Assembly: GCA_945861715.1 (NCBI GenBank)
Contig: CAMAVK010000001.1
Coordinates: forward strand, 394,908 to 458,907
DNA: 64,000 nt
Direction: 5' to 3'
From: Candidatus Woesearchaeota archaeon
Lineage (GTDB): Archaea > Nanobdellota > Nanobdellia > Woesearchaeales > GW2011-AR9
The notes under the pieces are model-generated. The model had not been told where the DNA came from, made no database searches, and saw only the letters and a list, made by a program, of their open reading frames with translations. The translations under genes and the position numbers were made by a program. This document shows positions 51,652 to 57,570 of this stretch, in pieces; position 1 is the stretch's first letter, and each line of letters begins with the position of its first letter.

Positions 51652-52737
51652 CTATTTCTTCTCAAACACTTCAATCCGTCCCTTATCTGCTTTCACCACA
51701 TATTCCTTTCTATCAGAAAACCCAGACAATACCGTCACAAATTCCGGAAGCAATATTCTCTCGCCGCGAAATGTAAGTTTCGTCATAATTTCCCGACCAG
51801 GCTCTCGCAACTCCGCTTCTTTGGACATCGCTTCAATCATCTCGGATGCTCGTTTACTACGATGGATCCCTACTTTCTCAGCAGTTCGAGAAGCTAAAAA
51901 CTTGGCAATTTCGCTTGCAACATCAACTGTTGCAACACTACTAATTCCTTGCAATCCTGGAGAAATATTCGCTTCTATAACCATCGGTCCTCTCGGGCCT
52001 TCTAAAATATCAATTCCGCAAATATCAACTTGGAGCGCCTGCGCTGCAGCAATCGCACAACTAATAACTTCACGAGACAAATTAATTTGCAATCCAACGC
52101 CTCCTGCATGAATATTTGCTCGCTTCTCTTCTTTTTGTGCTTGACGTCGCATCGCAGCAACAATTTTATCTCCTACTACGATAACACGGATATCAGCTCC
52201 GCCCGTTTCAATGTATTCTTGAATAATAAACGGTTGATTCAATGCACCAAGTGCATCCAACAATGAAGACGCCGAACTAAACGAATCTGCAAACATAACT
52301 CCCTTCCCCTGCGTACCCTCAGGAAATTTCATGACAATCGGGTATGATACTTGCTTTAACAACGCGCGAGCTGCCTCCGTTGTTGATGGAATATATGTTG
52401 TTGGCATAGGAATATTATGCTGTTGCAAGACAAGATGTGTTAACAACTTGTTATGAATTGTATTGAATGACGTAGCGGGAAGTGGCATATACGGAACCCG
52501 ACCTTCAAGCATTGCTGCAATAGATTGCAGAAGTTGAGCATAGCGAAAAGATCCCTTAACATACACACAATCAAAATCATCAAGAGGTTTGCCTTGATAA
52601 AAAATTCCTCCTTCTTTACCCAGTTGTACCTCAATTTTTTTCAAATCAAGTGTTTGCACTTCATCAAAATAAAACCGTGCTGCTTGAGCTAGCATCTCTG
52701 AACTTTTCGATCCAAGTGAAATCAACCCAAACTTCAT
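51652..52737 (-). CDS. rimK: RimK-family ATP-grasp ligase
   Basis: VMKFPEGTQGKGVMFADS; FIIQEYIETGGADIRVIVVGDKIVAAMRRQ; HAGGVG; DILEGPRGPMVIEANISPGLQGI. Confidence 0.92.
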   Translation of the reverse strand: MKFGLISLGSKSSEMLAQAARFYFDEVQTLDLKKIEVQLGKEGGIFYQGKPLDDFDCVYVKGSFRYAQLLQSIAAMLEGRVPYMPLPATSFNTIHNKLLTHLVLQQHNIPMPTTYIPSTTEAARALLKQVSYPIVMKFPEGTQGKGVMFADSFSSASSLLDALGALNQPFIIQEYIETGGADIRVIVVGDKIVAAMRRQAQKEEKRANIHAGGVGLQINLSREVISCAIAAAQALQVDICGIDILEGPRGPMVIEANISPGLQGISSVATVDVASEIAKFLASRTAEKVGIHRSKRASEMIEAMSKEAELREPGREIMTKLTFRGERILLPEFVTVLSGFSDRKEYVVKADKGRIEVFEKK

Positions 52738-52770
52738 AATGTTCCATCCTCTTTCTTTTTCAAATAAATT

Positions 52771-53154
52771 TTATTTTTTCACAGCTACTTTTTTCTTCGA
52801 ATCAAACTCAACTAACGGATCAATAATAAATTTTTCCTGTGTTAAAATATCCCGTCCAATCAGCAATGGATACGTCATATGACTGCGATCAGTAATACTC
52901 ATCTTTGCACTTATCTTTTTACCCTGAATTTCAAGAGTTGCCTGAACCACTTTACGAATCGTTTCACCATTTGCAGACCTAATTGTCTTCGTAAGCCCAG
53001 AAATAATAGGAAAATGTAAGTCCTTTGCAATCTTAATATCAATACTGGAGCTCATCGCCCCCGTATCAATACGCGCCACGACATCTTCATAACATTGTGC
53101 AGCACCAATTAAGCGAACATGTTCTAATAATCCAATCACTTTCCTTTGAACCAT
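52771..53154 (-). CDS. RimK-associated retropepsin-like zinc protease
   Basis: VVARIDTGAMSSSIDI; MTYPLLIGRDIL. Confidence 0.85.
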   Translation of the reverse strand: MVQRKVIGLLEHVRLIGAAQCYEDVVARIDTGAMSSSIDIKIAKDLHFPIISGLTKTIRSANGETIRKVVQATLEIQGKKISAKMSITDRSHMTYPLLIGRDILTQEKFIIDPLVEFDSKKKVAVKK

Positions 53155-53293: not shown

Positions 53294-53431
53294 GCCCCTG
53301 TAGTGTAGTCCGGAATGAACGTAAGCAATTACGAGCATGGACAAACTATCATACGGCCCTTTCAAGGCTGCGACTCGGGTTCAAATTCAGCGATCCCCCA
53401 AGGATACTGTACGAAATTCCCGGCGGGGGCG
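53294..53431 (+). tRNA. tRNA-Glu (anticodon TTC) with D-loop hairpin insertion and a T-loop insertion
   Basis: GCCCCTG/CGGGGGC acceptor stem; CGGCC-CTTTCAA-GGCTG anticodon arm; TCGGG-TTCAAAT..-CCCGG T arm. Confidence 0.85.
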
Positions 53432-53507
53432 TTCTTTTATTATCATTCAATCCAATTACCCGCTCACAAAATTCAGTGTGTGAAGATGTTCTATTAATCC
53501 CAACGCC

Positions 53508-54189
53508 AATGGAACCATTCAATAATTTCGATCGCTGGACTCAACTAAAAAACTACGTTGAATCCAACTGTGACCTCTATCAACTTCTCCAAGATTTCTG
53601 GCAGGTTTACAGCACACCATACGACAAACGCACAGTCCCAAAAGACCTAGAAAATAAAATAGAAGATCTGGGTGATGGCAATACCCGACATATCTATCGC
53701 ATTGGCAAAACCACAGAATACGAGTTTGATTGTGGTTTCGGAAAAATGGTATTAATCTGCAAACTTCCCGCACGAGGCGAGCATGAAAATTTTTCTTATC
53801 CTGCAAATTATTTTCCAACCGCACCAGACCTAGGAAGATCATATGCAGGTAAAGTACATCCAGAACGGGGTGCAAATATTCTCCTCAGACGACCACTCAT
53901 GGAAGCACAATCATTTGAAGAAGCAGCTGTAAAAGGAAAAAACATTCCAAAAGTAACTGGCATTATTGCAGGAAATGGCATCTTAGGAACACTAACCCAA
54001 GATGTTTCCGAAGGCGACAGAAAAGAAATTGAGTTTGCAGATTATGACCGAGTATACGTTATAGATAAAACTACACGTGCAAAAGAATTAGTCTACACAG
54101 ATCGAAAAGGCCACTTCCCATTAAGTCCAAAAACCGATTACTACTTCCATCGTTTACAAATCGACAATCCATTCAAGTCTCAAGTATAA
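53508..54189 (+). CDS. hypothetical protein, paralog of 58582..59154
   Basis: MEPFNNFDRW...LYQLLQDFW..DLGDGNTRHIYRIG..GTLTQD. Confidence 0.65.
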
Positions 54190-54315
54190 ATCAACTATTA
54201 AAGAATCTCAAATCAATGACCAAATAGTTCTCGCACTATTAAACGAGTTTCACAACCATTAAAAAGACACCATATTGTAAAACGACTATGTTCAGAAAAT
54301 TCTGACAAAAAAATC

Positions 54316-54900
54316 ATGGTAAAATGCACCTATTGCGATAACGAATTTAACAGTGAAGACGCTCTTCGCATGCATCAGCATACCAAACATCCTCAAACGA
54401 GGCCAAAAGTATTTCTTACACCAAAATCAAAAAAAGGAATAAAAATTGCTGCCATATTCTTGGTTACAATAGCAATTCTTCTCGTAAGTATAAACCTATA
54501 TCAATCAAAATATCCATCTACTAACATCGTCGAAAGTTCAGAAATTCCCACTGGTCCAATTCATTGGCATCCACACCTAACCATTATCATTGATGGCAAA
54601 GAACAAGCTATTCCTCCAAACATTGGTCTTGACGGTCCGGTTCATTCGCCCATTCATACCCATGATCCCGATGGTATTATCCATCTTGAAAATAATAATC
54701 CTACTGAGAAGACAATGAGATTGGGAACTCTCTTTGAACTATGGGGAAAAGAATTCAACCAGAATCAAATCTTTCAATATACCACTGAACAAGGGAATCT
54801 ATCTATGTCTGTCAATGGTGAAACAAATGAAGAGTTTGAAAATTACATCTTAAAAGAAAAAGATAACATCACAATCGAGTATATTAGTAATTCAAGATAA
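54316..54900 (+). CDS. C2H2 zinc finger + TM + extracellular His-rich (HWHPH...HTHD) domain protein
   Basis: CTYCDNEFNSEDALRMHQHTKH; one TM; IHWHPHLTIIIDGKEQAIPPNIGL..SPIHTHDPDGIIHLE. Confidence 0.8.
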   Translation: MVKCTYCDNEFNSEDALRMHQHTKHPQTRPKVFLTPKSKKGIKIAAIFLVTIAILLVSINLYQSKYPSTNIVESSEIPTGPIHWHPHLTIIIDGKEQAIPPNIGLDGPVHSPIHTHDPDGIIHLENNNPTEKTMRLGTLFELWGKEFNQNQIFQYTTEQGNLSMSVNGETNEEFENYILKEKDNITIEYISNSR

Positions 54901-54905
54901 ACTCT

Positions 54906-55904
54906 TTACCTTCCTCTTCCCTTCTCTCCTACTCCCTTCCCTTTCTTTCCCTGCGCAGGATTCAAAATATTAATCACTTCAAAATCTTTAATGTACGGCA
55001 ACTCTAAACGAAGTCTCTCTAAAAATCCATCTAACTCTAATGTTGTTGCAAACTCTACTTCAACATCTAAGTCCTTCTTCCCAATCAATTCATAAATCCG
55101 CACAACTTGTTTCTGAGAATGCAAATAAGAGATAAACTTATTTTTCTCACTCGGTTTACCAAGAACTAATGAAATCCTGTATGTATTGAATCCTAACATC
55201 GACGTATCAAGTACTGGAACAACTCGATGTAAAATCCCACATCTCACCAAATGTTGCATGCGAGAGTGCGTTGCCGCAGCACCCATCTTAATCAAGCCGG
55301 CGAGTGTCAACACCTCCTGCCGAGCGTCCGTTCGCAGATGTAACAACAATTTGTGATTATGCTCATCAATATCTTTTCTCAATGCACCATCACACAGCAC
55401 ACTTTCATCCAAATCCTTATTATACAAATGACGATGCCCGAAATAATGCACTTTCGTAATCACATAAAATTCCCGGTCTCCAATATATTCCGCATACTTC
55501 TCTAAAATTTGATGATAGTGTGCATAAAAAGTCTGACTCGTATTCACCCACACATCAACTTCAATATCCCAATCACTTGACATATACACAATCACATCCG
55601 AACGAGGAATCTTCTTCACTTCTGAAATAATCTCATTGCGCACATGATACGCCATATTTTGCAAATTAATCAACAATCGATATTGTTTCAAACCAAGAGC
55701 ATAGAAATCAATGATTGGCTCAAAGTGTGTAATAAATCCAACCTTCATCAACCTATTCAATCGATAATGTGCAACCTCTTTCGAAACCAGAATCGTTCTC
55801 GCAATCTTAGCAAGAGGCGTACGACTATTGAGTTCAAGTTCATACAACAACGACTTATTCTTCACATCCAATGAAAATTTCTTCCTTAGTACTAGTTCAG
55901 CCAT
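54906..55904 (-). CDS. Lrp/AsnC-family regulator, tandem HTH+RAM
   Basis: NSRTPLAKIARTILVSKEVAHYRLNRLMKVGFITHFEPIID repeated second half. Confidence 0.85.
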   Translation of the reverse strand: MAELVLRKKFSLDVKNKSLLYELELNSRTPLAKIARTILVSKEVAHYRLNRLMKVGFITHFEPIIDFYALGLKQYRLLINLQNMAYHVRNEIISEVKKIPRSDVIVYMSSDWDIEVDVWVNTSQTFYAHYHQILEKYAEYIGDREFYVITKVHYFGHRHLYNKDLDESVLCDGALRKDIDEHNHKLLLHLRTDARQEVLTLAGLIKMGAAATHSRMQHLVRCGILHRVVPVLDTSMLGFNTYRISLVLGKPSEKNKFISYLHSQKQVVRIYELIGKKDLDVEVEFATTLELDGFLERLRLELPYIKDFEVINILNPAQGKKGKGVGEKGRGR

Positions 55905-55997
55905 AATTACAACAAAACAGCACTAATTATAAATTTATCGCTATAAAGTTAAAGAAAAACAAGTAAAAGGTTTATCATTAATGTCATCATAAAAACT

Positions 55998-56079
55998 ACA
56001 ACGCGGACACTTAACACAAAAATGGTAAGGCCAGCAGTCGCAAAGACGACCTAGCTGACAACCGCGCAGGAGATAAAAA
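55998..56079 (+). promoter_or_regulatory. structured leader with 10-aa uORF upstream of 56080
   Basis: CGCGG/CCGCG outer helix, CAGC-A-GTCG/CGAC-CTA-GCTG hairpin; uORF MVRPAVAKTT* at 56022-56054; SD ggag before ATG 56080. Confidence 0.4.
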
Positions 56080-56433
56080 ATGTCGAAAGTAATTAGTGTT
56101 GTAGGACTAGTAGCCGGAGCAGTAGACGGATATTACAATGCGCAAGGAATTCCTTTGAGCAATCATATGGACAACTTACTATTCCATGCCGCACCTCTTG
56201 CAAATGGGGTACTCATCGGAGCGCAAGGTATCCTTATAGGTGGTGCCGGTGGAGTCGGCCTTGGAGTGAGTCGTTATTCATCCGGACTTGAAAATGTTGT
56301 AAAAGGAAGTATCGGCGGAGCTGCAGGAGCAATAACCGGTGGAATTGGCGCAGGTGGAGTTGCAACAGGAATAACCTATGTGTACACAGCTGTAGGGTAC
56401 ACTGCAGGTTACATCGCAGGAAAATTACTCTGA
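56080..56433 (+). CDS. Gly-rich glycine-zipper membrane protein
   Basis: GGAGGVGLGV..GGAAGAITGGIGAGG; SD-like ggag. Confidence 0.65.
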   Translation: MSKVISVVGLVAGAVDGYYNAQGIPLSNHMDNLLFHAAPLANGVLIGAQGILIGGAGGVGLGVSRYSSGLENVVKGSIGGAAGAITGGIGAGGVATGITYVYTAVGYTAGYIAGKLL

Positions 56434-56481
56434 GAAATACACCATCACAAATCAATAAATAAAATAACGGAGAAAAACACC

Positions 56482-57336
56482 ATGACAAAACAATCATTAG
56501 AAGAATTATTTGGAGAATTTGGTAGGATAGCTGATACCCTCTTTGGAGACCCAGCACAACCAAAATCACAAGTATCCGAACCAACCACTCCTAAACAAAC
56601 CGCTGCAGCATCAAGCGATGACAGTAAACTCATCACTGCCCTGGAAAAATGTTACCCTCAATATAAGCCTGCACTAACTCGGCTTGTAGCCCAAACCGCA
56701 ACGCATGTCAAACAAAGTGCGAATCCAAAACTCAGTGGCGCCCATGCCATTGCCGCACTCTACACGAATCAAAATGCAGTTGCTATGGAAACACTTGATG
56801 CAATAGCACTACCAACCAATCAAGAGATAGAATTACGAGCAATGATGCATTACGCAGGGGGAAACTTTCCACTTAGCACCACGCTATTTGAAAAAATGGC
56901 AGAAAACTACACCACTAAGAATGCACGTTTTGCTCATGTCAGTGCACTTAATAGACAGGAAAAAACAAGTCCCCAACAGTATGCAAGAATACTAAACGGA
57001 CTATGGCTGCGCTCAGCCCCGGCTTCAGACATGATGGGAGTAATGCATTTCAATCGAGGTGAGATGGATGGCGCAAGAGGATACTTCACACAATCCCTAG
57101 AGTTGACACCAACCGCTCAGCGAAAACTCAACCTCATGACGGCAATCGCTGCTCGTTCGGACATTGACAAAGCTCGAGTAATGGATAGTGAGATGCCAAG
57201 TCTCTTTCAAGAGTTTCAATACGCAGGGTCAATTGAGCAAGCAAAACAGGAACTTAACAGAACCAGAATCGGCTTCCCGTATCTCAAAGTAACAAACTTG
57301 TTTGAAGTGGCATGTAGTATTTACCAAGCTCCATAA
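56482..57336 (+). CDS. TPR-like hypothetical protein
   Basis: 284 aa helical ORF. Confidence 0.65.
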   Translation: MTKQSLEELFGEFGRIADTLFGDPAQPKSQVSEPTTPKQTAAASSDDSKLITALEKCYPQYKPALTRLVAQTATHVKQSANPKLSGAHAIAALYTNQNAVAMETLDAIALPTNQEIELRAMMHYAGGNFPLSTTLFEKMAENYTTKNARFAHVSALNRQEKTSPQQYARILNGLWLRSAPASDMMGVMHFNRGEMDGARGYFTQSLELTPTAQRKLNLMTAIAARSDIDKARVMDSEMPSLFQEFQYAGSIEQAKQELNRTRIGFPYLKVTNLFEVACSIYQAP

Positions 57337-57464
57337 TTTTTTTCTTTTTTTCTTTTAGTCTTATCTTCTCTACCCTCCACCAAACCATCAAATCCCTTAA
57401 ATTCCTCCTTTTCTTCAAAAAACCAAAAAGAATTTAAAAACTACCCATTAAAACCAATCTTAAT

Positions 57465-57570
57465 GCCCCTGTGGTGTAGTCCGGAACGCGCAATAGAAAT
57501 ATTCTGTGTGGACAAACTATCATACAACCCTCTCACGGTTGGGACTCGAGTTCAAATCTCGGCGGGGGCG
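57465..57570 (+). tRNA. tRNA-Glu (anticodon CTC) with D-loop hairpin insertion
   Basis: GCCCCTG/CGGGGGC acceptor; CAACC-CTCTCAC-GGTTG anticodon arm; TCGAG-TTCAAAT-CTCGG T arm. Confidence 0.88.

What the first reader, a model, noticed from the sequence alone, without database searches (positions are those of the whole stretch)
53308..57513. Two tRNA-Glu isoacceptors share a GNRA-capped hairpin inserted at the same D-loop position
Seen directly. tRNA-Glu(TTC), 53308-53342: GTCC-[GGA]-ATG-AA-CGTAA-GCAA-TTACG-AG-CAT-GGAC. tRNA-Glu(CTC), 57479-57513: GTCC-[GGA]-ACGCG-C-AATA-GAAA-TATT-C-TGTGT-GGAC. The outer GTCC/GGAC helix and the 3-nt GGA bulge (which would contain G18-G19) are identical. The inner stems differ in sequence but both remain paired, and both end in a GNRA tetraloop, so compensatory change suggests selection on structure. 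Known archaeal non-canonical tRNA introns use a bulge-helix-bulge (BHB); here I see a clean 3-nt bulge on only one side. The insertion could therefore be a relaxed BHB intron, or a retained extended D-arm specific to tRNA-Glu. Glu-tRNA is used here by GluRS (37663), GatD (59486) and probably the RimK ligase (51652).
Basis: partly seen in the sequence, partly recalled or inferred. Interest (0 to 1): 0.78.

Follow-up and report, generated by a model that had tools for sequence, protein, structure and literature searches.

The report
BHB introns in archaeal tRNA-Glu D-loops
The two hairpins are small introns that the cell is predicted to cut out of its two glutamate tRNAs with the standard archaeal splicing enzyme; such introns are a known kind of thing, although this uncultured lineage (Woesearchaeota-like archaea) is rich in them and appears to have only a simple version of that enzyme.

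Summary
The insert is best explained as a 31-nt bulge-helix-bulge (BHB) intron in each tRNA-Glu gene, not a retained extended D-arm. Cutting there gives GTGTAGTCCGG|ACTATCAT in both genes. Of 12 genomes of the same family whose tRNA-Glu lacks the insert, 8 show that exact junction and 4 differ by one base (GCCC for GTCC); 20 others carry an intron at the site. Only spliced sequences are recognised as tRNA-Glu (75 nt each). Across 24 distinct D-loop introns, sequence and length (19-90 nt) change freely, the hairpin and central helix persist with compensatory change, and GNRA loops are rare (3/24). The genome has RtcB and a single EndA gene that looks homotetrameric and lacks the loops linked to relaxed-BHB cleavage; that is the one mildly surprising point. 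New member of a known kind. No RNA data were available, so splicing is inferred.

The parts
53294..53431 (+). tRNA-Glu(TTC) gene with two introns; the product with both introns removed is 75 nt
   Evidence: Read directly. ARAGORN finds no tRNA unspliced or with one intron removed, and tRNA-Glu(ttc) with both removed; coordinates.
53308..53311 (+). exon strand GTCC of the BHB central helix (positions 15-17a)
   Evidence: Pairs with GGAC 53339-53342; 22 of 24 distinct introns keep all four pairs.
53312..53314 (+). 5' bulge GG^A; 5' splice site between 53313 and 53314 (G19/A20)
   Evidence: conserved GG^ in all 24 introns.
53314..53344 (+). D-loop intron of tRNA-Glu(TTC), 31 nt: AATGAACGTAAGCAATTACGAGCATGGACAA
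   Evidence: removal restores the D-arm sequence found uninterrupted in family members.
53339..53342 (+). intron strand GGAC of the central helix
53343..53345 (+). 3' cleavage site AA^A; splice site between 53344 and 53345
   Evidence: Intron end GGNY-AA^ in all 24 introns.
53386..53417 (+). second intron, T-loop of tRNA-Glu(TTC), 32 nt: TTCAGCGATCCCCCAAGGATACTGTACGAAAT
   Evidence: Its removal is needed for ARAGORN to recognise the tRNA; T-loop introns at the same site in relatives.
57465..57570 (+). tRNA-Glu(CTC) gene with one intron; spliced product 75 nt
   Evidence: ARAGORN: none unspliced, tRNA-Glu(ctc) spliced.
57479..57482 (+). exon strand GTCC of the central helix
   Evidence: Pairs with GGAC 57510-57513.
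57485..57515 (+). D-loop intron of tRNA-Glu(CTC), 31 nt: AACGCGCAATAGAAATATTCTGTGTGGACAA
57510..57516 (+). GGAC AA^A: intron strand of the central helix and 3' cleavage site

Best explanation
Each insert is a 31-nt archaeal tRNA intron at position 19/20 of the D-loop. In the pre-tRNA, exon GTCC (positions 15-17a) pairs with GGAC near the 3' end of the intron, giving the 4-bp central helix. The intron folds on itself as the inner helix, whose sequence is free to drift. EndA is expected to cut GG^A and AA^A, the RtcB-type ligase to join GG to ACTATCAT, and the excised hairpin is probably a by-product. tRNA-Glu(TTC) also loses a T-loop intron. The motif is relaxed (HBh' type), because the D-stem closes only several nucleotides beyond the 3' site. 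Shown by sequence: junction, pairing, conservation, presence of EndA and RtcB genes. Inferred: actual cleavage, enzyme assignment and fate of the intron.
For: ARAGORN recognises tRNA-Glu(ttc) and (ctc), 75 nt each, only after removal at the BHB sites. Of 12 same-family genomes with an intron-free tRNA-Glu, 8 have the exact predicted junction GTGTAGTCCGG|ACTATCAT and 4 have GTGTAGCCCGG|ACTATCAT; 20 genomes of the family carry an intron there. 24 distinct introns keep GG^..GGNY-AA^. The central helix is fully paired in 22, as GTCC/GGAC (17), GTCC/GGAT (3) and GCCC/GGGT (2, a U-A to C-G two-sided change). All 24 introns fold below composition-shuffled controls, mean z -3.8. A scan of 85,462 species for the architecture gave 17 hits; 15 are tRNA-Glu, all in archaeal records except one contig labelled Buchananbacteria. 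EndA and RtcB are present. Other tRNAs of this genome are interrupted too.
Against: No RNA data. The motif is not a strict hBHBh': in the minimum-energy fold the 3' site lies in an internal loop. Two relatives have a C.A mismatch in the central helix. The only EndA found looks like the homotetrameric type, which is described as narrow in specificity (PMC6379350).
Confidence: 0.95

Rival explanations
1. A retained extended D-arm: the hairpin stays in the mature tRNA-Glu as a lineage-specific identity or regulatory element.
For: The hairpin forms in the unspliced fold, and both isoacceptors have one.
Against: Family members have tRNA-Glu without it at the same junction, even within one genus (G299 with, G192 without). 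Sequence, length (19-90 nt) and loop are not conserved, whereas cleavage-site bases are. tRNA-Glu(TTC) also needs a T-loop insert removed. A splicing endonuclease and ligase are encoded.
Confidence: 0.03
2. The genes are decayed tRNA-Glu copies carrying insertions, and functional copies lie elsewhere in the genome.
For: Standard tRNA finders miss both genes.
Against: The pattern for an uninterrupted tRNA-Glu D-arm finds none in this genome, and no other tRNA-Glu was recognised among the tRNA-model matches. Spliced forms are intact cloverleaves. The same arrangement recurs in 20 family genomes.
Confidence: 0.01
3. The excised intron, or its GNRA-capped hairpin, has a function of its own after excision, for example by binding a protein or guiding a modification.
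For: All 24 introns keep a hairpin, and both loops in this genome are GNRA.
Against: Only 3 of 24 loops are GNRA. The two window introns agree at 10 of 24 core positions. An inner helix is part of BHB recognition anyway.
Confidence: 0.04

Closest known systems
Non-canonical BHB tRNA introns of Thermoproteales and Thaumarchaeota (PMC4033280, PMC8450103)
   Same: Short introns outside position 37/38, sometimes several per gene, with a central 4-bp helix; D-arm and T-arm sites are known (PMC12397907, PMC6379350).
   Different: The lineage is Woesearchaeota-like. The papers found here discuss such introns mainly in Crenarchaeota, Thaumarchaeota, Korarchaeota, ARMAN and a few methanogens.
Methanopyrus kandleri pre-tRNA-Glu(UUC) relaxed-BHB intron (PMC6379350)
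   Same: Relaxed BHB intron in the same isotype.
   Different: M. kandleri has a two-subunit (alpha-beta)2 EndA; here one gene was found. Whether the intron position matches was not checked.
Nanoarchaeum equitans split tRNA-Glu(CUC)/(UUC), joined at 37/38 (PMC3218864, PMC4090602)
   Same: A DPANN archaeon in which both tRNA-Glu isoacceptors are disrupted and processed through a BHB motif.
   Different: Trans-spliced halves joined at 37/38 and a heterotetrameric EndA, versus cis introns at 19/20 here.

Membership tests
archaeal BHB tRNA intron | 4-bp central helix with the exon on the 5' side and the intron on the 3' side | tested here: met
   GTCC/GGAC in both genes; two-sided compensatory change GCCC/GGGT in relatives.
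archaeal BHB tRNA intron | cleavage after the second nucleotide of each bulge gives a normal tRNA | tested here: met
   GG^A and AA^A give 75-nt tRNA-Glu recognised by ARAGORN and the junction of intron-free relatives.
archaeal BHB tRNA intron | two clean 3-nt bulges flanked by helices on both sides (strict hBHBh' subtype; relaxed subtypes lack this) | tested here: not met
   The 5' bulge is clean, but the 3' site is in an internal loop, so it is filed as the relaxed HBh' subtype, not the strict one.
archaeal BHB tRNA intron | splicing endonuclease and ligase encoded | tested here: met
   EndA E=2.4e-29; RtcB E=2.1e-168.
archaeal BHB tRNA intron | excision observed in RNA | not testable with these tools
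   No transcript data held.
homotetrameric (alpha4) EndA | single catalytic-subunit gene, no second subunit | tested here: met
   One match in the genome with the Pfam profile and with a family profile at E<=10; one convincing copy in most of the family. A very divergent beta subunit could be missed, and the assembly is 98.33% complete.
homotetrameric (alpha4) EndA | catalytic Tyr/His/Lys and an acidic C-terminal loop like that of the M. jannaschii enzyme | tested here: met
   VDDEGDVSYW aligns with VDADGDIVYY of 1a79; VDDEGDV invariant in five family members. That this segment is the L10 assembly loop is from general knowledge.
homotetrameric (alpha4) EndA | homotetramer in solution | not testable with these tools
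   Oligomeric state needs biochemistry.
broad-specificity EndA | Crenarchaea-specific or ARMAN-specific loop | tested here: inconclusive
   The 9-residue insertion of A. pernix is absent in the alignment, but an invariant Lys80 sits in the short loop at that place in five family members.

The most novel reading that the evidence does not exclude
A single-gene, apparently homotetrameric EndA without the known specificity loops removes relaxed, non-canonical introns from D-loops and T-loops in this lineage, perhaps with the help of the invariant Lys80 or the charged N-terminal extension. This would break the published rule that only (alpha-beta)2 and epsilon2 enzymes do so efficiently.
Probability: 0.4. 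Interest if true: 0.55.

Novelty: new member of a known kind. Interest (0 to 1): 0.33.

Why it matters
It shows that this Woesearchaeota-like order carries non-canonical, multi-intron tRNAs that standard tRNA finders miss, so tRNA sets of such genomes are likely undercounted. Because an intron at one site is present or absent even between close relatives, the family offers a natural series for studying gain and loss of tRNA introns. It also gives a direct test of the proposed co-evolution between EndA architecture and intron type.

Tried and rejected
GNRA capping as a conserved signal: rejected, 3 of 24. A second EndA subunit: weak Pfam matches in G267 and G225 proved unconvincing on reading the frames, and a family profile found only one gene in this genome. 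Splice-site enumeration with ARAGORN scores on the other tRNAs gave clear answers for several (Ala, Val, Gln, Gly) and ambiguous ones for others; I did not finish the whole set. Literature searches for tRNA introns in Woesearchaeota found no description in the held library, which is not proof of absence; the one paper holding both terms concerns group I introns.

Full report
What is there. The full genes are 53294-53431 (tRNA-Glu, anticodon TTC) and 57465-57570 (tRNA-Glu, anticodon CTC), both on the + strand. ARAGORN reports only tRNA-Thr(CGT) in the window, and Rfam at its gathering scores only that tRNA and a 5S rRNA. The architecture GTAGTCCGG...GGACNNNNNATCA occurs twice in the window and never in 100 shuffles.

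After GGAC comes AA^A in both genes. Cutting GG^A and AA^A removes 31 nt from each gene and joins GTGTAGTCCGG to ACTATCAT. In tRNA-Glu(TTC) a second insert of 32 nt in the T-loop must also go. ARAGORN finds no tRNA in the unspliced sequences or in tRNA-Glu(TTC) with only one intron removed, and finds tRNA-Glu(ttc) and tRNA-Glu(ctc), 75 nt each, when all are removed. The spliced exons of the two isoacceptors agree at 66 of 75 positions; the intron cores agree at 10 of 24.

Comparison with relatives. The window lies in a 1.30-Mb genome of 98.33% estimated completeness. In the same family, tRNA-Glu genes were recovered from 32 genomes by D-arm pattern. Counted by hand, twenty carry a D-loop intron (this genome included) and twelve do not. 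All twelve intron-free genes have the 3' exon ACTATCAT. Eight (G210, G297, G119, G192, G307, G271, G257, G323) show the exact predicted junction GTCCGG|ACTATCAT, and four (G295, G290, G247, G063) have GCCCGG|ACTATCAT. Genus g6 has one genome with the intron (G299) and one without (G192). Across the order, the strict intron pattern occurs in 8 of 292 genomes and the uninterrupted D-arm in 183 of 292. The intron pattern is narrow, so 8 is a lower bound.

Structure. Twenty-four distinct introns, 19-90 nt, were collected. All have GG^ at the 5' site and GGNY-AA^ at the 3' site; the collecting pattern required these, so their constancy is partly by construction, but the uncorrelated intron cores and the matching intron-free exons are not. 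The central helix is GTCC/GGAC in 17, GTCC/GGAT in 3, GCCC/GGGT in 2 and GCCC/GGAC (one C.A mismatch) in 2. GCCC/GGGT is a two-sided change against GTCC/GGAC at the second pair. Each intron folds better than shuffles of its own letters (mean z -3.8; mononucleotide shuffles, so approximate). Loops vary, and 3 of 24 are GNRA, two of them in this genome. The structural constraint is therefore that of a BHB substrate, with no sign of constraint on the loop.

Type of motif. Exon-side pairing does not resume directly after AAA; the minimum-energy fold puts the 3' site in an internal loop. This is the relaxed HBh' form in the terms of PMC6379350. D-arm and T-arm introns are established in archaea (PMC6379350, PMC12397907), as are several introns per tRNA gene (PMC4033280, PMC8450103).

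The genome is rich in tRNA introns. Of 27 matches to the tRNA model, 22 span 83-129 nt; some of these are class II tRNAs with a long variable arm. Introns at 37/38 are clear in tRNA-Ala(TGC), Val(TAC), Gln(TTG) and Gly(GCC). tRNA-Arg(TCG) has a D-loop intron with its own central helix CTGG/CCAG and an anticodon-loop intron; removing both gives tRNA-Arg(tcg), ARAGORN score 121.4. T-loop introns at the tRNA-Glu site recur in relatives.

Enzymes. One EndA gene encodes 217 aa (L001:1135-1788). It matches TIGR00324 and the Pfam EndA domains, and its best solved relative is the M. jannaschii homotetramer 1a79, E=1.7e-35. A family profile finds no second copy, and most of 51 family genomes have a single convincing match (G307 has two). 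The alignment to A. pernix EndA (3p1z) shows a 9-residue insertion there but not here. The acidic VDDEGDV segment near the C-terminus is invariant in five family members and resembles VDADGDI of the M. jannaschii enzyme. An invariant Lys80 lies in the short loop where the A. pernix insertion sits, which is only a lead. Reviews state that only (alpha-beta)2 and epsilon2 enzymes efficiently remove relaxed-BHB introns (PMC6379350) and link non-canonical introns to such enzymes (PMC4033280). The nanoarchaeon Nst1 likewise lacks an identified beta gene but has only two intron-bearing tRNAs (PMC3655853). The combination seen here is therefore worth a biochemical test, but a divergent second subunit is not excluded. 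RtcB is present.

Verdict. These are introns of a known kind, in a lineage for which I found no description in the held papers. The finding was correctly seen and half correctly interpreted. Splicing itself remains inferred from sequence.

Noticed in passing
L019 (G000:C2:208262-208369, minus strand): tRNA-Arg(TCG) of the same genome has a 17-nt D-loop intron with central helix CTGG/CCAG plus an anticodon-loop intron; both must be removed to give tRNA-Arg.
   Followed up: yes
L089 and L103 (G311): The two tRNA-Glu isoacceptors of one relative carry nearly identical 90-nt D-loop introns, suggesting recent duplication or conversion between isoacceptors.
   Followed up: no
L038 (MHII01000034.1): A contig labelled Candidatus Buchananbacteria (a bacterium) carries an intron-containing archaeal-type tRNA-Glu, so it is probably misbinned.
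   Followed up: no
L001:1135-1788: EndA of this family has a charged N-terminal extension of about 45 residues of variable sequence before the conserved enzyme.
   Followed up: no
window 51652-53154, minus strand: A RimK-like ATP-grasp ORF lies next to a 127-aa ORF that reads like a retropepsin-type protease (IDTGAMSSS), just upstream of the tRNA-Glu(TTC) gene; judged by eye only.
   Followed up: no
G307 (L059 and G307:C45:5692-5952): One family member has two EndA-like genes, both over the Pfam cut-off; contamination or a real second subunit was not resolved.
   Followed up: no
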